64,000 nt of DNA, from the NCBI GenBank assembly GCA_027923965.1, contig AP026969.1:3968001-4032000 (forward strand), written 5' to 3'. The position numbers and the translations under genes were made by a program. The stretch's first letter is position 1. The number at the start of each line of letters is the position of its first letter. Source of the DNA: Comamonadaceae bacterium OS-1. Lineage in GTDB: Bacteria; Pseudomonadota; Gammaproteobacteria; Burkholderiales; Burkholderiaceae_C. Shown here one piece after another: positions 33,454 to 44,108 of the stretch. The notes below the pieces were generated by a model, which worked only from the letters and a program-made list of their open reading frames with translations, was not told the origin of the DNA and ran no database searches.

Positions 33454-36400
33454 TTACCGCACCCGCTGCAGTAAATCCAGCGCGGCTTCAAAGTCGTAGC
33501 CTGCAATGGCGGCCTGGAGGCTGTCGAACACGCCCGGCAGTAACTGTTTGAAAATGGCGGCGTGCTGGTGCAGCAGCTCGATGGCGTCGGCATCGTCGTC
33601 GCCCAACAAATGGACCAGCTGCTCGCACAGCGCCTGGGCATGCTCGGGGTCCACCGTCTCGGGGCTACCGGCTGGCAAACCTGCGGACGGCGCGGGCAGC
33701 AGCAGGGTGATGGCGGCAACCAGGGGGGCCAGCAGCTGGGTGGTGGCGGTGGCCAGGGCCTGGATGTCAGCCAACGGTTCTTGCCGGTAAATTGCGCGCT
33801 CCAGTTCGGAGGCGCTGGCCTGCAATGCCGTGGCACCGATGTTGCCCGCTGTGCCTTTGAGCGTGTGGGCCGTGCGCTCGGCGGCGGCGTAGTCGTTCTG
33901 GTCCAGGCGGTACAGAATTTCAGCCACGGCACCAGCCTGCCCGGCGGCAAATTTGTACAGAAAATCCTGGTACAGCGCCTGTTTGCCGAGGATGCGGCGC
34001 AGCCCCAAGTCAACATCCAGACCAGGAATACTGCGCAGGCTGGCCATGCCCCCCACGATGGCACCCGCCCCCACCGGCAGCGCGGCCACCGGTGCCGCCC
34101 GCGCGCTGCCCAGGCCACTGCGCGGCGCGATCCACTGGGCCAGGGCCTGCCACAACTCCTCGGGTTCGATGGGTTTGGCGACGAAGCCGTCCATGCCCGC
34201 ATCCAGGCAGCGCTGGCGGTCAGCATGCATGGCGTTGGCGGTCATGGCCACAATTGGCAGCGCGGCGTTGCGCGGGTCCTGGCGCAGCAGGCGGGTGGCG
34301 CTGATACCGTCCATCACCGGCATTTGCATGTCCATCAGCACCAGGTCGTAGAGCTGCTCCATCTGGTGGCTGTGGCCCACCATGTCGATGGCGCGTTGGC
34401 CGTTGTCGGCTATTTCGACCACAAAGCCGGCCTCAAACAGCAGCTCACACGCGACTTGCTGGTTGAATTCGTTGTCTTCTACCAGCAGGATGCGGGCACC
34501 GCTGCGCGAGGCCAGGGTCTCCATGGTCCGGGCGGTAGCCTGGGTATCGGGCGCGTCTTCGGCTGGCACGCGCTTGCGCCCCATCGCCGCCAGCATGGTG
34601 TTGAACAGCAGCGAGGCGTTCACCGGCTTGACCAGCAGATCCTGAATGCCCGCGGCCTGCGCCCCCTGCACCACTTCTTCGCGCCCGTACGCCGTCACCA
34701 GGATCGGCTTCGGCGCGGGCTGCAGCCCCAGCGCGGTGATGGCGTGCGCGGTCTGCAGACCGTCCATGCCCGGCATCTGCCAGTCCAGCATGGTGATGTC
34801 AAACGGGTAGCCCCCGGCGGCGGCGGCGCGCACCGCCGCCACGGCTTTGGCCCCTGAATCGACCGAGGCCACTTCAAAGCCCATGCTGCGCAGCATGTCG
34901 ACCAGCACCAGGGCGGCGTGGGCGTTGTCGTCCACCACCAGCACGCGCTTGCCCCGCATGTCCAGGTCGGCCAGGGCCGGGCGCTGGATGGCCTCGCCCA
35001 GGCCGAGCTGCGCGGTGAACCAGAAGCAGGAGCCTTGGCCGTAGCTGCTTTGCACCCCCACGCTGCCGCCCATGGCTTCGGCCAGGGCTTTGCTGATGGC
35101 CAGGCCCAGCCCGGTGCCGCCGTATTTGCGGGTGATGGAGCTGTCGGCCTGTTGGAAGCTTTGGAACAGGCGGCCGATTTGTTCTTCGGTCAGGCCGATG
35201 CCGGTGTCGCGCACTTCAAAGCGCAGCAGGGCGCTGTCGTCGGAGCCCGCCTGCAGGCGCACGGCCATGCTGATTTCGCCGCGTTCGGTGAATTTGATGG
35301 CGTTGTTGGCGAAGTTGATGAGAACCTGGCCCAGGCGCAGCGGGTCGCCGCGCAGGCTTTGCGGGACTTCGGGGGCCACGTCGCAGACCAGCTCCAGGCC
35401 TTTGGCGGCGGCTTTCTCGGCGACCACGTTGGCCACGTTTTCCAGCAGTTTGTCCAGCGCGAAGGGCAGGCTTTCGATGGACAGCTTGCCGGCTTCGACC
35501 TTGGAGAAGTCCAGGATGTCGTTGATCACGCCCAGCAGGTGCTGGCCGGACTGGCGGATCTTGGCCACGTAGTCGCGCTGGCGCGGGTTGAGCTCGGTTT
35601 TGAGGGCCAGGTAGGACATGCCGATGATGGCGTTCATGGGGGTGCGGATTTCGTGGCTCATGTTGGCCAGGAAGTCGGTTTTGAAGCGGTTGGCTTCTTC
35701 GGCCAGGTCTTTGGCCCGGCGCAGTTCGGCTTCGGCGTGTTTGCGCTCGCTGATGTCTTCCAGCACCCAGATGGCGGCGTCGGCAAACTCCCGCACCACC
35801 ACCCGCTGGCCCACCAGGCGCCCGGTAAAGCGCCGCCCGTCGGCCGTCCGATAGTCCTGCTCCTGCACCATGCGCTGCCCCTGGTCCATCACCCGCCGGG
35901 CTTCGCTCCGGAACGCATCGTGCTCCTCGGGTGTGGGAAACAGCAGGCCCAGGTTGCGGCCGCGCAAGCGCTCCACCGGCAAACCGACGATGGCCGAAAA
36001 GCCGACGTTGCACTGGCGGATCTGCCCGTCGGCGGTGAAGATCAGGCCGGACGGAATATTGTCAAAAATCACCTGCTGCTGCTGCATCACCTCGTGCAGG
36101 CGGTTCTCGCGCTCCTTGATGCCATCGATCACCTGCAGGTAGCCGGTAGACAGCACCGAGCCATCGGGCAGCGCCCGCGGCACCGACGCGCAGTGCACCC
36201 AGTGCACCTGGCCGTCGGGGCGGCGGATGCGGAAGTCGCGCGAAAACGCGTGCATTTTGCGCAGCGACGCCGCCGAGGATTCGACCAGCCCCGCCAGATC
36301 GTCCTCGTGCACGGTGGTATCCAGGGTCCGCGCATTGCTCATGCGCATGATGGCAGTCGCCGGAATCCCCAGGATTTCCTGCGCCCGGTCGCTGACGTAG

Positions 36401-37191
36401 GTGTAGCAGCTGCGGCCATCGGGAAAGCGCTGCAGCCGGTACACCAGCAACGGCAGGGCCGAGGTGATCTCGAACAAATCCTCTTGCGCCGCACGCTGCA
36501 CCGCCTCGGTCTCCAGTTTGGCACCGGCCTCCAGCAGGCGCAGCTGCTGGGCCTGGGCCAGCACCGCGGCGGCCTCGCGCTTGCGGTATTGCAGGTACAA
36601 GGCCACCACCAGGCCCAGGGTCAGCAGGCCCTGGAAAATGGTCAACCAGCGGGTGGTGGCCACCTGGCGCTGGGCCTCGACCGTGCGCCGGTCCATCATG
36701 GCCGACCCGGATTGGCGCGACTCCAGCGACAGCTCGCGGATCGGCACGTACAGCGCCGCCAATTTGTTCTGCAGCATCCGCAACTGGTCCGGGGTGGGCG
36801 CACGGGCCACCTGGTGATCGAACACCGGATCGGCCGCCGCCAAAAACGACTTGACATGCCAGTTGACATCCGCCAACCGGGCCTTGTCCTGCAGCAGAAA
36901 AAATGCCTCGCCCATCTCCAGGATGCTCGCCCGGCTATAAAACAGGTCGTAACGCAACTGCAGGTTTTCGTCGGTCTCGCTCTCGGGCGCGTACAGGCGG
37001 CGGTCCACCGCACCGGCCAAGCGGTGGTATTCCACCTCCAGCTGCGCCATGCTCCACACCACATTGCTGACGCTGCGGCGGCTGACGTTGCTCATGGTCT
37101 CTTGCTGGTGGTACTGGAATACGGCAATCGCCGCATACACGAGCGCCAAGACCACCGTCAATAGGACCAGAAGTTTGCTGCTGCGGTTCAT
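33454..37191 (-). CDS. Large hybrid sensor histidine kinase with two receivers and HPt
   Basis: A 1245-residue membrane sensor. I used the ATG at 37191 because it starts the first helix (residues about 5-25); an upstream GTG is possible. A periplasmic region ends at a second helix (about 182-200). Two PAS domains follow (about 235-350 and 365-480), then the HisKA box NMSHEIRTPMNAIIG near 510, the ATPase with a DTGIGL motif, receiver 1 (LDWQMPGMDG), receiver 2 (MDMQMPVMDG) and a C-terminal HPt domain with the phosphorylated His in RTAHTLKGTAGN. All relay parts are present in one protein, and no response regulator lies beside it. Confidence 0.93.
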   Translation of the reverse strand: MNRSSKLLVLLTVVLALVYAAIAVFQYHQQETMSNVSRRSVSNVVWSMAQLEVEYHRLAGAVDRRLYAPESETDENLQLRYDLFYSRASILEMGEAFFLLQDKARLADVNWHVKSFLAAADPVFDHQVARAPTPDQLRMLQNKLAALYVPIRELSLESRQSGSAMMDRRTVEAQRQVATTRWLTIFQGLLTLGLVVALYLQYRKREAAAVLAQAQQLRLLEAGAKLETEAVQRAAQEDLFEITSALPLLVYRLQRFPDGRSCYTYVSDRAQEILGIPATAIMRMSNARTLDTTVHEDDLAGLVESSAASLRKMHAFSRDFRIRRPDGQVHWVHCASVPRALPDGSVLSTGYLQVIDGIKERENRLHEVMQQQQVIFDNIPSGLIFTADGQIRQCNVGFSAIVGLPVERLRGRNLGLLFPTPEEHDAFRSEARRVMDQGQRMVQEQDYRTADGRRFTGRLVGQRVVVREFADAAIWVLEDISERKHAEAELRRAKDLAEEANRFKTDFLANMSHEIRTPMNAIIGMSYLALKTELNPRQRDYVAKIRQSGQHLLGVINDILDFSKVEAGKLSIESLPFALDKLLENVANVVAEKAAAKGLELVCDVAPEVPQSLRGDPLRLGQVLINFANNAIKFTERGEISMAVRLQAGSDDSALLRFEVRDTGIGLTEEQIGRLFQSFQQADSSITRKYGGTGLGLAISKALAEAMGGSVGVQSSYGQGSCFWFTAQLGLGEAIQRPALADLDMRGKRVLVVDDNAHAALVLVDMLRSMGFEVASVDSGAKAVAAVRAAAAGGYPFDITMLDWQMPGMDGLQTAHAITALGLQPAPKPILVTAYGREEVVQGAQAAGIQDLLVKPVNASLLFNTMLAAMGRKRVPAEDAPDTQATARTMETLASRSGARILLVEDNEFNQQVACELLFEAGFVVEIADNGQRAIDMVGHSHQMEQLYDLVLMDMQMPVMDGISATRLLRQDPRNAALPIVAMTANAMHADRQRCLDAGMDGFVAKPIEPEELWQALAQWIAPRSGLGSARAAPVAALPVGAGAIVGGMASLRSIPGLDVDLGLRRILGKQALYQDFLYKFAAGQAGAVAEILYRLDQNDYAAAERTAHTLKGTAGNIGATALQASASELERAIYRQEPLADIQALATATTQLLAPLVAAITLLLPAPSAGLPAGSPETVDPEHAQALCEQLVHLLGDDDADAIELLHQHAAIFKQLLPGVFDSLQAAIAGYDFEAALDLLQRVR

Positions 37192-37514
37192 GAAAGCGAC
37201 TCTCACGGCATGGCATGCTGACGAGCTCTCACATCTATGGGTTTTCTTCCTGGCCGGGTGCCGCGTGAGCCAATTTCGTCAGCCGCAGGATTCACTATGT
37301 GGGTAGAGCCAAGGTCACAGTTTTACCGAAAAAATCTGCATCCACCTGTAGCAAGCTCACAACCGCATGTAACAAACGAAAACGTATGTTTCTCTGTACG
37401 ATTCAATGGGCGCGGCGCGTAGGATGCCGCCACCACTGGGCATGATGGGGGTCCGAAAACCCGCTTGTCCCGCAGCCGCGTGTGGGGCATCCACTGGCCA
37501 GGAGCACAGAATCC
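37192..37514. other. 323-bp gap without a convincing gene
   Basis: The region between two divergent genes has AT-rich patches (about 37315-37410) flanked by GC-rich DNA. I see no good open frame with a ribosome site apart from the one that starts the DUF1398 gene. Promoters of both neighbours probably lie here, but no box is clear enough to name. Confidence 0.5.
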
Positions 37515-39770: not shown

Positions 39771-40247
39771 GAAAAGAAGTGGTTTCTGGCTACCGCCGAA
39801 AGTTGCACCGGCGGCATGATCGCCGCGGCCTGCACCGATCTGGCGGGGTCGAGTACCTGGTTTGAACGTGGCTTCGTCACCTATTCCAACGCCGCCAAAA
39901 CCGAGATGCTGGGGGTGGATGCCGCGCTGATCGCCCGGCACGGCGCGGTCAGTGAAGCCGTGGCAAGGGCCATGGCGGCGGGGGCGCTGGCCCATTCGCA
40001 CGCCCAGGCGGCAGTGGCGGTGACCGGCGTGGCCGGGCCCAGCGGCGGCAGTGCCGACAAGCCGGTGGGTACGGTGTGGTTCGGCTTTGCTGTGGCCGGA
40101 CAGGTGACCGCGGAGTGCCGACACTTTCCCGGCGACCGGGCCGCCGTGCGGGCGGCTACGGTGCAGCATGCGCTGGGGCGGCTGGTGGAGCTGCTAGGCC
40201 AGCGGCCTATTCCACAGCCTAGTCCGCGTCTGTCGCCAGGCGGCTGA
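39732..40247 (+). CDS. pncC: Nicotinamide-nucleotide amidase (CinA C-terminal type)
   Basis: A 171-residue enzyme that deamidates nicotinamide mononucleotide in NAD recycling. The catalytic segment TAESCTGGMIAA lies near residues 20-31, and the GVAGPSGG motif follows. The N-terminal domain of CinA is absent, as in most short PncC proteins. The first codons (MLTLPALVADL) come from a repeat element, so the true start could also be the next in-frame ATG at 39765. The 3' end overlaps the response regulator gene by 29 bases in a tail-to-tail way. Confidence 0.9.
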   Translation: MLTLPALVADLMLEKKWFLATAESCTGGMIAAACTDLAGSSTWFERGFVTYSNAAKTEMLGVDAALIARHGAVSEAVARAMAAGALAHSHAQAAVAVTGVAGPSGGSADKPVGTVWFGFAVAGQVTAECRHFPGDRAAVRAATVQHALGRLVELLGQRPIPQPSPRLSPGG

Positions 40248-41199
40248 TGCGCTCGATGGCATCGGCCATCCAGTCTGGCTGCAGCGCAGCGGGTTTGCCG
40301 CCGGTGCGCAGAGACACCACCAGGCCATCGGGATGGGCCTCGACATGGACGCTGCCACCCCAGTACGACAACCACGCCAGCCAGGCCACGGTGGCCGCAG
40401 ACGGCGGCTCGTGCGAGGCCGCATCCAGCAGCCAGGTGATGACCGGGCGGCTGGTGAGCCTGGCGGTATGGCCCTGCAGCAGCACCAGGCCCGGCAGCAC
40501 ATCGGCCAGTGCCTGCAAGGCTGCTGTGGCGTTGTCCACACCAGCAAAGCGTGGCTGCAGGCTGGCCAGGGCCTGGCCGATGGCGATGCTGCGCTGGGCT
40601 TCGTACTGCATCAGCTCGGCGTGGTCCATGCTGCGCCAGTCGATGGGCGGCAACGCGCAGCTGCTGAACTCGGCCGTCTGCAGGTAGAGCTGCAAGCCGC
40701 GCTCGTTGTCCACATGCAAAAAGCCCGCGCACACCACAGCCAGCTGCGAGATACGGCTGGCCAGTAGCTGCTGGCGCTGCACGGCCATTTTTTCGCGCAG
40801 CAGGTCGTCGCGCTCGCAGCGGGTTTCGGCCAGTTCCAGGGCGTTGCGCATGTCGGAGCGCAGCAGCTCCAGGTCCCAGGGCTTGGTGACGTAGCGGTAG
40901 ATTTCCCCGGTGTTGATGGCCTCGATGGCCTCACCCAGCTCGGAGTAGGCGGTAGTGAGCATGCGCACCATCTGGGGGTGGTGCTCGCGGGCGTAGCGCA
41001 GCAGCTCGTTGCCTGTGGCACCCGGCATGCGCTGGTCGGTGATCAGCACGGCGATTTCGGCACCCCGTGCCCGCAGCACGGCCTTACCCTCCTCCACCGA
41101 CAGGGCGGTAAGCACCGGCGCCATGGGGTTGATCAGACGCTCAAAGTATTTGAGGGCCATTGGTTCGTCGTCAACGTACAGGATCTTGTCGGGTCTCAT
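40219..41199 (-). CDS. Response regulator, PhcQ/PhcR-like
   Basis: A 326-residue cytosolic protein. The start at 41199 gives MRPDKILYVDDEPMALKYF, the usual receiver start. The receiver covers residues 1-120 with acidic pocket D-D-E, phosphorylated Asp in LITDQRMPG, and KPW. A coiled segment follows (125-160), then a C-terminal part of about 170 residues with no domain I can name and no histidine-kinase boxes. The order methyltransferase, histidine kinase, response regulator is the same as phcB-phcS-phcR/phcQ of Ralstonia. It lies 153 bases behind the kinase gene. The assignment is inference. Confidence 0.7.
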   Translation of the reverse strand: MRPDKILYVDDEPMALKYFERLINPMAPVLTALSVEEGKAVLRARGAEIAVLITDQRMPGATGNELLRYAREHHPQMVRMLTTAYSELGEAIEAINTGEIYRYVTKPWDLELLRSDMRNALELAETRCERDDLLREKMAVQRQQLLASRISQLAVVCAGFLHVDNERGLQLYLQTAEFSSCALPPIDWRSMDHAELMQYEAQRSIAIGQALASLQPRFAGVDNATAALQALADVLPGLVLLQGHTARLTSRPVITWLLDAASHEPPSAATVAWLAWLSYWGGSVHVEAHPDGLVVSLRTGGKPAALQPDWMADAIERISRLATDAD

Positions 41200-41352
41200 A
41201 AGGTGCCTTGCCAGGTTTATCAACAGAGAAAGACTGGAAATACAGGGCTGCACAAGCCCCTGGTCCAGCCACGAAAGTCATCGCATTGCGCCGACACCGC
41301 ACCAGGTCCATGCCGGTGCAATGCGGTGGAGTGCGGAACAAACGGGGCCCAT

Positions 41353-42702
41353 TCAGACATTTTGGTGGGCCAGTCCGAGGTCAAACGCAAATTCGGTCCA
41401 CGCGCCGGGCTCGCTGCTGACGCGCAGCGAACCGCCGTGGCGCTGCACGATGGCATAGCTCACGCTCAGGCCCAGGCCCAGGCCCTTGCCCACGTCGCGG
41501 GTGGTGAAAAACGGCTCGAACACCCGGGCCAGGTGCTCGGGCTGGATGCCGGTACCGTTGTCGCGCACGGTCACCTCCAGCCGGTCGCCCTGCCGCACCG
41601 CCCGCACCTCGATGCGCGGGTTGGCTCGGGCGGCTTTGTGCAAGGCCAGCGCGGCATTGCCCAGCAGGTTGATGAGCACGCCGATCAGCGCAGGCTCGTC
41701 GCCGCGCACGTGGGTGTCCATGGGCAACTCGACCGGCACAGCGATACCTTTGAGCTCAAACCCCGTCAGGCGCAGCGCCGATTGCAGGGCTTTTTCAAAC
41801 AGGAAGATGCGGCTGCTACTGGCATCGCCGGGCTGCTGGTAGGCAAAGGTCTTCAGGTCGGAGACGATGCTTTGCACCCGCTGCATGCCCTCTTTGGCAT
41901 CGCCCAGGCTTTCCTGCAGGTCGGCGTTTTTCAGCACCGCAGGGTCCATCAGCGACATGTTGAGGGCCATCAGGCTGTAGTTGACCGGGTTGTTGACCTC
42001 GTGCAGCAAGCCCGCCGCCAGGGTGCCCAGCGCGGCCATTTTTTCCTGCTGCATCATGTGGCCCTTGATGTCGGCCAGGGCCTGGTTGGTGTGCTGCAGC
42101 GCCGCGTTCTTCAGCTGGATTTCTTTTTTCAGCCGAAACGACAGCCAGCGCCAGCGTTCGTTGTAGACAGCCAAGGCAATACCGATGATGGCGTAGAACA
42201 GCATGAACAAGGCATTGCCCCCAAATGCATGAAAGTCCCGGATACCGCCCTGGCGCCAGACACAGGCCACGCAGTAAGCGGCCAAGGTCAAGGTACCAAA
42301 AAACACCGCTTCCATGAAAGAGATCGGCAAGAAAAAGGCCATGCCGCTGAGCACAAAGGTCAGACCGACAAAGTAGATCGACTGCTCGCCGTTGGTTTTA
42401 TAAATCATCCAGGACACCATGGCCTGGGGGACGCATAGCCAGAAGTACGTCAGCATCTTGATGTGGTCACGGCCCCAGGCGCACTGGTAGCTCAAGAGCA
42501 CCAGCCCGATCACCACGCAGGCAGCGACGCGCAAACGCAAAAATTCCGGGGCGAACTGGGGGTAAAAAATATGGTCCAGCGCCAGCCCGGCCAACACCAA
42601 TACGATGGTCATCAGGCAGGCGGCCCGGCTGTTGAAAATCAGGTAGCCGTGCAGCTCTTGCCGGTAGGCAGCATCTTTGCGCGGCTGTATGAAACGCATC
42701 AT
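41353..42702 (-). CDS. Membrane sensor histidine kinase, PhcS-like
   Basis: A 449-residue sensor. The N-terminal half carries about six hydrophobic helices (residues 28-205) and no large periplasmic domain, which fits sensing of a hydrophobic signal in the membrane. The HisKA box reads GLLHEVNNPVNYSLMALNMS near residue 255, and the ATPase has DNGTGI and GKGLGLGLSVS. The ATG overlaps the stop of the methyltransferase gene (ATGATG around 42702), so the two are coupled. PhcS of Ralstonia senses 3-hydroxy fatty acid methyl esters; a similar role here is inference. Confidence 0.82.
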   Translation of the reverse strand: MMRFIQPRKDAAYRQELHGYLIFNSRAACLMTIVLVLAGLALDHIFYPQFAPEFLRLRVAACVVIGLVLLSYQCAWGRDHIKMLTYFWLCVPQAMVSWMIYKTNGEQSIYFVGLTFVLSGMAFFLPISFMEAVFFGTLTLAAYCVACVWRQGGIRDFHAFGGNALFMLFYAIIGIALAVYNERWRWLSFRLKKEIQLKNAALQHTNQALADIKGHMMQQEKMAALGTLAAGLLHEVNNPVNYSLMALNMSLMDPAVLKNADLQESLGDAKEGMQRVQSIVSDLKTFAYQQPGDASSSRIFLFEKALQSALRLTGFELKGIAVPVELPMDTHVRGDEPALIGVLINLLGNAALALHKAARANPRIEVRAVRQGDRLEVTVRDNGTGIQPEHLARVFEPFFTTRDVGKGLGLGLSVSYAIVQRHGGSLRVSSEPGAWTEFAFDLGLAHQNV

Positions 42703-44108
42703 TGCGCCACGCCGCCGACGGTGGATTCGGAAAAAATATTCAGCCCGGTGGCATCGGTGTAGACCGTGGTGTCCTGCAGGCCCGGCGGCAAGATTCTTTG
42801 CACATCGGCCTCGTCGCGGCAAATCAAATGCCACTCCAGAAAGTGCTCCATCCAGCGCCGCTCGGGGTTGCTGGAATGCACATTGGTCAGCAGCAGTTTG
42901 CCACCCACGCGCGACTGGTTGGCCATGTAGCGGATCAGGCGGTTGCACACCTTGTCCGTCAGATAGTCGAACAGACCGGCGCAGTACACGTAGTCAAAAC
43001 GCTCGGCCTCGGGCAGCGGTTGGGTCAGGCTGGCGCGTTTGAGCAACTGGTGGACCGAGGCGTGCTGCAGCGTGAGGTGCAGGGTTTTGCCGGTGCCTTT
43101 GTGCAGGGTGTCCAGCACCTGGCGGGTATGGTCCAGGGTTTCTTCGCTGAAATCCACCAGCACGAATTCCAGGCGATCGAAATACGGACTCGATTGCACC
43201 AGCCGCTGGATTTCCAGGGCCGGGCCACAGCCGATATTCAGCACCCGCATCGGGCGCCGGGCCTGTACAGCCTGCGCGGCCAGTGCCTCCAGCCGGTCGA
43301 ACAAGAGGGCGATACGGTTGCGGTGGGCCTGCGCCACACCGGCCTGCAAAAACATGAAGTTGACCAGCTGGAAATAGCTGCTGGGGCCCTGCCGGGGGTC
43401 GCCCACGATCTGGTTCACCATCTCGTAGTCGCCCGCATAGCCCAGCGGCTTGGAGAAGGTGCGGTGCACGAACGGCGCGCGCAGGATCAGCGGATGGATG
43501 GCGCTCTGGGCAAAGCTGCGGTGCAGGGGTACCAGCGCATCGGGCACCAAGGCGGCCTCCCGGTCAAACCACAGCAGGTACTCGCGGCCCTTGTGCAGCA
43601 GGGGCGTGCCCAGCTCGACAAACACTTCGGGCGGGATGCGACCGTCGGCATCGCGCGGCAGGCGGCCCGCCACGTCGAGCTGGTCGATCCAGCGGGCCAC
43701 CTCGAAAAAATAGGCCCGCATCTCACCCACCACCACCTGGTAGTCACGGCGCACGTTGAAGCGGCTGGCCCAGTCCTGCACAAAGGCAGTCGCAGCTTCC
43801 CCGGCGGCGGCGGGGCCGGCCTGGATGGGCCCCACCTCGTTCCACGCATCCATCAAGCCCACCGACACCACCACCATCAGGCCGGTGTTGACCAGACTGA
43901 CGACGACGGCCCGGCCCTGGTAGACGATCTGCTGGGCAGCGCGTACGGTCAGATCGTGCAACATCTCACTCACCTGCACCAGGGCATCGGGGTTGTACAC
44001 CTCCATCACCAAGGAGCCCCGCTGGTGGCTGATGAGGGTTGCGCGCACCGCTTCGTGCTTGCTGTTGCGGAAGCTGATCACCGGATGGATGGCGGTTAAG
44101 GACTGCAC
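42699..44108 (-). CDS. SAM-dependent methyltransferase, PhcB-like (3-hydroxy fatty acid methyl ester synthesis)
   Basis: A 469-residue protein. The N-terminal 100 residues look PilZ-like (EVYNPDALVQVSEML). A middle region carries KPLGYAGDYEMVNQIVGD, a motif I associate with proteins annotated as extracellular-factor biosynthesis. The C-terminal methyltransferase has the SAM motif VLNIGCGPALEI near residue 290. In Ralstonia PhcB makes 3-hydroxy palmitate or myristate methyl ester, the signal read by PhcS. The gene heads a three-gene unit with the sensor and response regulator. The family match is good, but the product has not been shown. Confidence 0.75.
   Translation of the reverse strand: MQSLTAIHPVISFRNSKHEAVRATLISHQRGSLVMEVYNPDALVQVSEMLHDLTVRAAQQIVYQGRAVVVSLVNTGLMVVVSVGLMDAWNEVGPIQAGPAAAGEAATAFVQDWASRFNVRRDYQVVVGEMRAYFFEVARWIDQLDVAGRLPRDADGRIPPEVFVELGTPLLHKGREYLLWFDREAALVPDALVPLHRSFAQSAIHPLILRAPFVHRTFSKPLGYAGDYEMVNQIVGDPRQGPSSYFQLVNFMFLQAGVAQAHRNRIALLFDRLEALAAQAVQARRPMRVLNIGCGPALEIQRLVQSSPYFDRLEFVLVDFSEETLDHTRQVLDTLHKGTGKTLHLTLQHASVHQLLKRASLTQPLPEAERFDYVYCAGLFDYLTDKVCNRLIRYMANQSRVGGKLLLTNVHSSNPERRWMEHFLEWHLICRDEADVQRILPPGLQDTTVYTDATGLNIFSESTVGGVAQ

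What the first reader, a model, noticed from the sequence alone, without database searches (positions are those of the whole stretch)
40219..44108. A phc-like quorum-sensing locus: methyltransferase, membrane kinase, response regulator
Three same-strand genes encode a SAM methyltransferase with the KPLGYAGDYEMVNQ motif, a multi-helix histidine kinase coupled to it by an ATGA overlap, and a receiver-domain regulator. This order is that of phcB-phcS-phcR/phcQ, which in Ralstonia makes and senses 3-hydroxy fatty acid methyl esters. The regulator lacks the kinase domain of PhcR, and no PhcA-type LysR gene is adjacent. It may be a reduced version of the system with an unknown signal and output.
Basis: partly seen in the sequence, partly recalled or inferred. 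Interest (0 to 1): 0.75.

Follow-up and report, generated by a model that had tools for sequence, protein, structure and literature searches.

The report
Phc signalling operon that lost phcR
A Rhodoferax-like bacterium carries three of the genes by which Ralstonia makes and senses a fatty-acid-ester signal, but one regulator gene has been deleted and the usual master switch was not found, so the signal probably acts through something else.

Summary
They are full-length relatives of Ralstonia PhcB (53%), PhcS (50-52%) and PhcQ (42-43%). The third gene is phcQ, not a shortened phcR: PhcR and PhcQ receiver domains form two separate groups and the window protein lies among PhcQ. The operon once held phcR. 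The closest relative (PhcB 95% identical) has it between phcS and phcQ; the window keeps only decayed ends. On a tree of 48 loci, loss or truncation of phcR needs at least five changes, while phcB, phcS and phcQ stay together. After the deletion these three show no sign of relaxed selection. No PhcA orthologue was found in this genome, nor in the phc-bearing genomes tested outside Ralstonia, Cupriavidus and one sister group; no PhcX orthologue either. Best reading: a working PhcB-PhcS-PhcQ module, probably using a 3-hydroxy fatty acid methyl ester, with PhcS signalling to PhcQ and an output other than PhcA. Operon identity and phcR deletion are shown; signal, phosphotransfer and output are inferred. 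phc clusters in other Betaproteobacteria are already in print; the repeated phcR loss and the PhcA-free state are not stated in the texts I read.

The parts
42699..44108 (-). phcB: SAM-dependent methyltransferase, predicted signal synthase, 469 aa
   Evidence: residues invariant in 32 of 32 homologues include R22 and KPLGYAGDY
41353..42702 (-). phcS: membrane histidine kinase, 449 aa, H234 as predicted phospho-acceptor
41234..41360 (-). scar of phcR: the start of the gene and about its last 100 bases, out of frame and decayed
   Evidence: 58 bases here against 1085 in sibling G624; alignment of both ends; intact phcR in G624 and G158
40219..41199 (-). phcQ: response regulator, receiver plus a C-terminal domain without a clear Pfam match, 326 aa, D55 as predicted phospho-acceptor

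Best explanation
This is a phcB-phcS-phcQ signalling operon from which phcR has been deleted. SHOWN: the three genes are orthologues of the Ralstonia and Cupriavidus genes; phcR is reduced to a scar; key catalytic and phospho-acceptor residues are kept; no PhcA or PhcX orthologue was found in the genome. INFERRED: PhcB methylates a 3-hydroxy fatty acid to a diffusible methyl ester; PhcS senses it and changes the phosphorylation of PhcQ, through H234 and D55; PhcQ, which has no recognised DNA-binding domain, acts by binding another protein. In Ralstonia that partner is reported to be PhcA; here it must be something else, for instance another transcription factor, PhcB itself or a further two-component protein.
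For: Identity and order of the genes. Methyltransferase tree with outgroup puts the window with all PhcB rows, 97*. Receiver tree separates PhcR from PhcQ with the window in PhcQ, SH-aLRT 100. phcR scar against the siblings and no phcR elsewhere in the genome. dN/dS 0.09-0.13 against the sibling and no excess of changes on the window branch. PhcQ D10, D11, D55, T83, K106 invariant in 45 of 45 and PhcS H234 aligned with the Ralstonia HEINNPVN histidine. No PhcA orthologue in the own genome (at 1e-25; at 1e-45, all 48 candidates scored). In Ralstonia PhcQ matters more than PhcR (PMC8578825, abstract) and binds PhcA (PMC13320629, abstract and passages).
Against: No measurement of any signal, phosphotransfer or regulon in this organism. 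Sequence identity to Ralstonia is about 50%, so the acyl chain or even the substrate may differ. The name PhcA for my query gene rests on its place by the phc operon, its C-terminal tail and my recall of its first residues; no call names it. A LysR protein too distant to recognise could still do PhcA's work. Selection figures rest on few changes.
Confidence: 0.72

Rival explanations
1. The module works as described but PhcB makes a different signal, with another acyl chain or another carboxylic acid, and PhcS has shifted with it.
For: PhcB and PhcS of the window's family stand apart from the Ralstonia/Cupriavidus/Oxalobacteraceae group, 99* in the methyltransferase tree and 100* in the joint tree. 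Ralstonia strains already differ in making 3-OH MAME or 3-OH PAME (PMC8578825, introduction).
Against: 53% identity along the whole PhcB with the KPLGYAGDY and CGPA blocks kept; nothing in the sequence points to another substrate.
Confidence: 0.25
2. A LysR regulator too far diverged to be seen as PhcA takes PhcA's place as partner of PhcQ.
For: Generic LysR matches of 24-32% exist in 12 of the 18 other phc-bearing genomes without PhcA.
Against: phc-free genomes of the same family have matches just as good (25-34%), and the own genome has none at E <= 1e-25 there. PhcA of Ralstonia and Cupriavidus is 70-100% conserved, so a sudden drop to 30% would be odd.
Confidence: 0.15
3. Loss of phcR marks the start of decay and the operon no longer works here.
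For: phcR is gone in this genome while the nearest sibling keeps it.
Against: Intact reading frames, dN/dS 0.09-0.13, changes unique to the window 6/5/8 against 8/9/5 in the sibling that keeps phcR; other lineages without phcR also keep phcB, phcS and phcQ.
Confidence: 0.07
4. The third gene is a PhcR that has lost its kinase domain.
For: It has a receiver and stands next to phcS.
Against: Receiver tree; full PhcQ length and matching C-terminal domain; siblings carry both genes. Receiver-only PhcR does exist, in Paraburkholderia-type operons (24 of 99 loci), always beside a separate PhcQ.
Confidence: 0.01

Closest known systems
Phc quorum sensing of Ralstonia (phcBSRQ plus phcA)
   Same: phcB, phcS and phcQ in the same order, full length, 53%, 50-52% and 42-43% identical; conserved phospho-acceptor residues
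   Different: phcR deleted; no PhcA and no PhcX orthologue found in the genome; signal unknown
phcBSRQ operons of the same GTDB genus and family (Rhodoferax sp. WC2427 = probably G624; G158; others)
   Same: phcB, phcS, phcQ up to 95%, 96% and 94% identical; shared flanking genes; no PhcA orthologue in the 17 genomes of the family tested
   Different: G624, G158 and most others keep a full phcR; G625 and G622 lack it as the window does
phc operons of Paraburkholderia, e.g. the plasmid of P. graminis PHS1 (L023)
   Same: phcB, phcS, phcQ; no PhcA orthologue in the six such genomes tested (one of them titled Burkholderia sp.)
   Different: PhcR cut down to its receiver (24 loci) or to an end remnant (L058) rather than removed
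phc operons of Janthinobacterium without phcR (L074, L104, L119)
   Same: phcB, phcS, phcQ with no phcR and no PhcA orthologue
   Different: only 4-16 bases between phcS and the PhcQ match, no scar seen; a separate loss on the tree

Membership tests
Phc quorum-sensing system | PhcB-type methyltransferase | tested here: met
   53% over the whole length to probable Ralstonia PhcB; one group with PhcB against outgroup, 97*
Phc quorum-sensing system | PhcS-type membrane kinase beside phcB | tested here: met
   50-52%, ATGA overlap, HEVNNPVN kept
Phc quorum-sensing system | PhcR (receiver plus kinase) in the operon | tested here: not met
   only a scar; none elsewhere in the genome
Phc quorum-sensing system | PhcQ in the operon | tested here: met
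Phc quorum-sensing system | PhcA as output regulator | tested here: not met
   no match in the own genome at E <= 1e-25 or 1e-45 with all 48 candidates scored
Phc quorum-sensing system | makes and senses 3-OH MAME or 3-OH PAME | not testable with these tools
   needs mass spectrometry and mutants
PhcQ family | receiver groups with PhcQ, not PhcR | tested here: met
   clean split, SH-aLRT 100, 80 rows, few columns and some long branches
PhcQ family | PhcQ-type C-terminal domain | tested here: met
   aligned over the whole length with 45 PhcQ-position proteins
PhcR family | receiver of PhcR type plus histidine kinase part | tested here: not met
   no kinase match in Pfam
histidine kinase (C-terminal part of PhcQ as a degenerate kinase) | detectable likeness to kinase domains | tested here: inconclusive
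   hhalign probability 0.2% to PhcR and 1.7% to PhcS kinase parts, positive control 99.5%; the structure list covers residues 2-137 only
Lqs system | LqsR/PhcX orthologue | tested here: not met
   no match in the own genome at E <= 1e-20 with a PhcX-like query; LqsA and LqsS were not searched for

The most novel reading that the evidence does not exclude
Most bacteria that carry phcB-phcS-phcQ have no PhcA: the core from signal to PhcQ is wider, and perhaps older, than the PhcA circuit known from Ralstonia; PhcR is a dispensable accessory lost again and again; and PhcQ drives a still unknown output in Rhodoferax, Janthinobacterium and Paraburkholderia. The window genome, with phcR recently deleted and a near-identical sibling that keeps it, is a natural experiment on what PhcR is for.
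Probability: 0.6. Interest if true: 0.65.

Novelty: new variant of a known kind. Interest (0 to 1): 0.5.

Why it matters
Phc signalling has been studied mainly in a plant pathogen, with PhcA as its output and PhcR as the classic partner of PhcS. The comparison here says that the common part is PhcB-PhcS-PhcQ and that neither PhcR nor PhcA is needed for the module to be kept. That agrees with Ralstonia genetics, which gives PhcQ the larger role, and makes PhcQ's other partner a question that can be studied in harmless environmental bacteria.

Tried and rejected
PhcQ as a receiver fused to a degenerate histidine kinase: suspected from an H-box-like stretch. Profile comparison gave no support (0.2% to PhcR's kinase part, 1.7% to PhcS's; control PhcR against PhcS 99.5%). 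Left open. Apart from receiver matches no Pfam family matched more than 4 of 45 members, the best at E 0.011.

An output gene next door: flanking genes shared by related loci (UPF0149 in 10, SnoaL-like in 7, CinA in 8, PIN-like in 13, a 402-aa methyltransferase in 11 of 18 loci) look like plain synteny. Fusions of the PhcQ C-terminal part: none seen; of 22 hits 21 list only the receiver domain and one, 220 aa long, lists none.

PhcA candidates: LysR genes near the Cupriavidus operon looked like OxyR (L122, L123) and a GcvA-like protein (L124, L125) and were dropped; these names are my reading. The LysR gene near the Ralstonia operon was taken as PhcA; its name rests on place, a charged C-terminal tail such as PMC13320629 describes, and recall.

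Literature: six full-text searches (one search found nothing). Among the papers listed I saw none on phc genes in Rhodoferax. PMC10653808 (section 17 and passages; figures not held, supplements not opened) maps phc clusters by genus, Hydrogenophaga among them, and searched for PhcA orthologues; its figure may already show genera without PhcA. So 'new' means not stated in the text I read.

Correction of a note: entries 3 and 4 of the notebook give 18 genomes for group g239; the list shows 16, and genomes of that group without a match may be among the 175 not listed.

Full report
WHAT IS THERE. The window lies in a single-contig genome of 5.12 Mb. Its nearest named protein relatives are Rhodoferax (P0001, 95%, Rhodoferax sp. 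WC2427; the 4,778,649-base contig of P0001 has the length of contig C1 of G624, so I take G624 for that strain). On the minus strand stand a methyltransferase (44108-42699), a kinase overlapping it by ATGA (42702-41353) and a receiver protein (most likely 41199-40219).

IDENTITY. A methyltransferase match was found in 18 of 250 genomes of the same family; 14 are full-length (52-100%), 4 match only the catalytic part at 29-34%. In the genus it is 8 of 8, in 120 genomes spread over the order 5 of 120, one of them partial. A plasmid of Paraburkholderia graminis carries methyltransferase, kinase, short receiver and long receiver in a row, 53%, 50% and, for the long receiver, 43% identical to the window. 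Four genomes of group g239 have the order PhcX-like gene, phcB, phcS, phcR, phcQ (g239 holds 16 of the 54 positive genomes). I call them Ralstonia because PMC10653808 (section 17 read) reports PhcX as immediate neighbour there; no call names them. Window against these four: PhcB 53%, PhcS 50-52%, PhcQ 42-43%, PhcR 37% over the receiver and some residues after it.

PHCQ, NOT PHCR. In a tree of 80 receiver domains the 34 PhcR-position rows lie on one side of a branch and the 45 PhcQ-position rows plus the window on the other, SH-aLRT 100; the tree has few columns and some long branches. The window protein aligns over its whole length with 45 PhcQ-position proteins, and JGI names close relatives PhcQ (P0248, P0253).

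PHCR WAS DELETED. In G158 (PhcB 85%) and G624 (PhcB 95%) a full phcR stands between phcS and phcQ. Nucleotide alignment with G624 runs from window 47000 to 41352 (93.7%) and again from 41293 to 38023 (89.5%); where the window has 58 bases the sibling has 1085. With G158 the blocks end at 41325 and begin at 41289. The scar keeps the start of phcR and about its last 100 bases with a further small gap. A phcR query finds in the own genome only PhcQ's receiver (42%) and an ordinary kinase (29%). The scar has drifted beyond a clean cut, which speaks against an assembly error, but I saw no reads.

REPEATED LOSS. Of 107 loci entered, 2 are the same contigs as others and 2 are cut by contig ends; the other 103 all have phcB, phcS and phcQ hits. 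Without 4 loci with a broken gene (L080, L083, L105, L107) 99 remain: phcR full in 67, receiver only in 24, absent in 6 (window, L074, L104, L119, L191, L193), remnant or split in 2 (L058, L076) (classes set by simple rules on BLAST hits). On a tree of 48 of these 99, picked by me to spread over the groups, full against not full needs at least 5 changes: the window, G625 (L191), G622 (L193), a Janthinobacterium group and a Paraburkholderia-type group (quick search, SH-aLRT only). Such counts cannot tell gain from loss; the scar in the window and the remnant in L058 show loss there. G625 is a 71% complete genome, but its contig runs unbroken across the spot.

STILL UNDER SELECTION. Window against G624: dN/dS 0.10, 0.09 and 0.13 for phcB, phcS and phcQ; with G158 as outgroup, amino-acid changes unique to the window are 6, 5 and 8, unique to the sibling 8, 9 and 5. 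Small numbers, but no sign of decay.

NO PHCA FOUND. A LysR gene about 10 kb downstream of phcQ, on the other strand, in the probable Ralstonia genomes was taken as phcA. As query at E <= 1e-25 over 60 genomes, 23 of them phc-bearing, a close match (71-94%) came up in 4: one g239 (Ralstonia), two g219 (Cupriavidus) and one g221. The own genome had no match; of the other 18 phc-bearing genomes 6 had none and 12 had generic LysR matches of 24-32%, much as the 37 phc-free genomes (matches of 25-34% where any). At E <= 1e-45 over 38 phc-bearing genomes (the own genome is in both calls) 14 have PhcA: 6 of 6 Ralstonia and 8 of 8 Cupriavidus; none of 4 in the window's genus, of 5 Paraburkholderia and 1 Burkholderia sp., or of 14 others (Janthinobacterium, Pseudoduganella, other Oxalobacteraceae, two Burkholderiaceae MAGs). 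In larger genomes only 35 or 55 candidates were scored; several genomes are incomplete MAGs. The PhcX-like query has no match in the own genome, at most 29-36% over part of its length in the 17 genomes of family f1, 28-36% in the two g235 genomes, but 47-100% in the two Ralstonia, two Cupriavidus, one g221 and three f38 genomes.

HOW IT MAY WORK. In Ralstonia PhcB makes 3-OH MAME or 3-OH PAME and PhcS senses it (PMC8578825, introduction read). PhcS H230 is taken to pass phosphate to PhcR, PhcQ and ChpA, PhcR contributing least (PMC11960443, passages). Deleting phcQ alters 96.8% of the positively QS-dependent genes, deleting phcR 22.9% (PMC8578825, abstract). PhcQ binds and stabilises PhcA (PMC13320629, abstract and passages). 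An earlier paper found PhcQ to act on signal production rather than on transduction to PhcA (PMC6989110, passages), which would also fit a PhcQ that works without PhcA. The window keeps the matching residues: PhcS H234 at the Ralstonia HEINNPVN histidine, PhcQ D55 with D10, D11, T83, K106 (45 of 45), and PhcB R22 (32 of 32), the site of the R22C change in PMC6989110. The simplest mechanism is signal, PhcS, PhcQ, then a partner that is not PhcA. Everything beyond gene content is inference.

VERDICT. A real, conserved and probably working PhcB-PhcS-PhcQ module; not a complete Phc system, since PhcR and PhcA were looked for and not found. New variant of a known kind.

Noticed in passing
G397:C1:2597463-2599742: In this probable Ralstonia genome the phcA query matches in two pieces about 1.2 kb apart, so the gene looks interrupted; intact copies exist in six other genomes of the group.
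   Followed up: no
G037:C49:435-1415; also G082 and G372: In family f38 a PhcX/LqsR-like gene (47-48%) stands beside phcB on the opposite strand, a linkage that PMC10653808 names only for Hydrogenophaga, Cupriavidus and Ralstonia.
   Followed up: no
L110, L120: Operons of Paraburkholderia sp. BCC1886 and P. ferrariae nest among Cupriavidus ones, yet these genomes show no PhcA: the operon may have been transferred without phcA.
   Followed up: partly
L023 (NZ_CP024936.1): A phcB-S-R(receiver only)-Q operon lies on a 494-kb plasmid predicted to be conjugative.
   Followed up: no
window 43854-44081, PhcB residues 10-85: The PhcB model has an N-terminal part of six strands that reminds me of PilZ barrels; it holds the invariant R22. 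Not confirmed by any search.
   Followed up: partly
window 33454-37206 (minus strand): A 1250-aa hybrid histidine kinase with two receivers (receivers, the rest my reading) ends about 3 kb downstream of the operon; a link was not examined.
   Followed up: no
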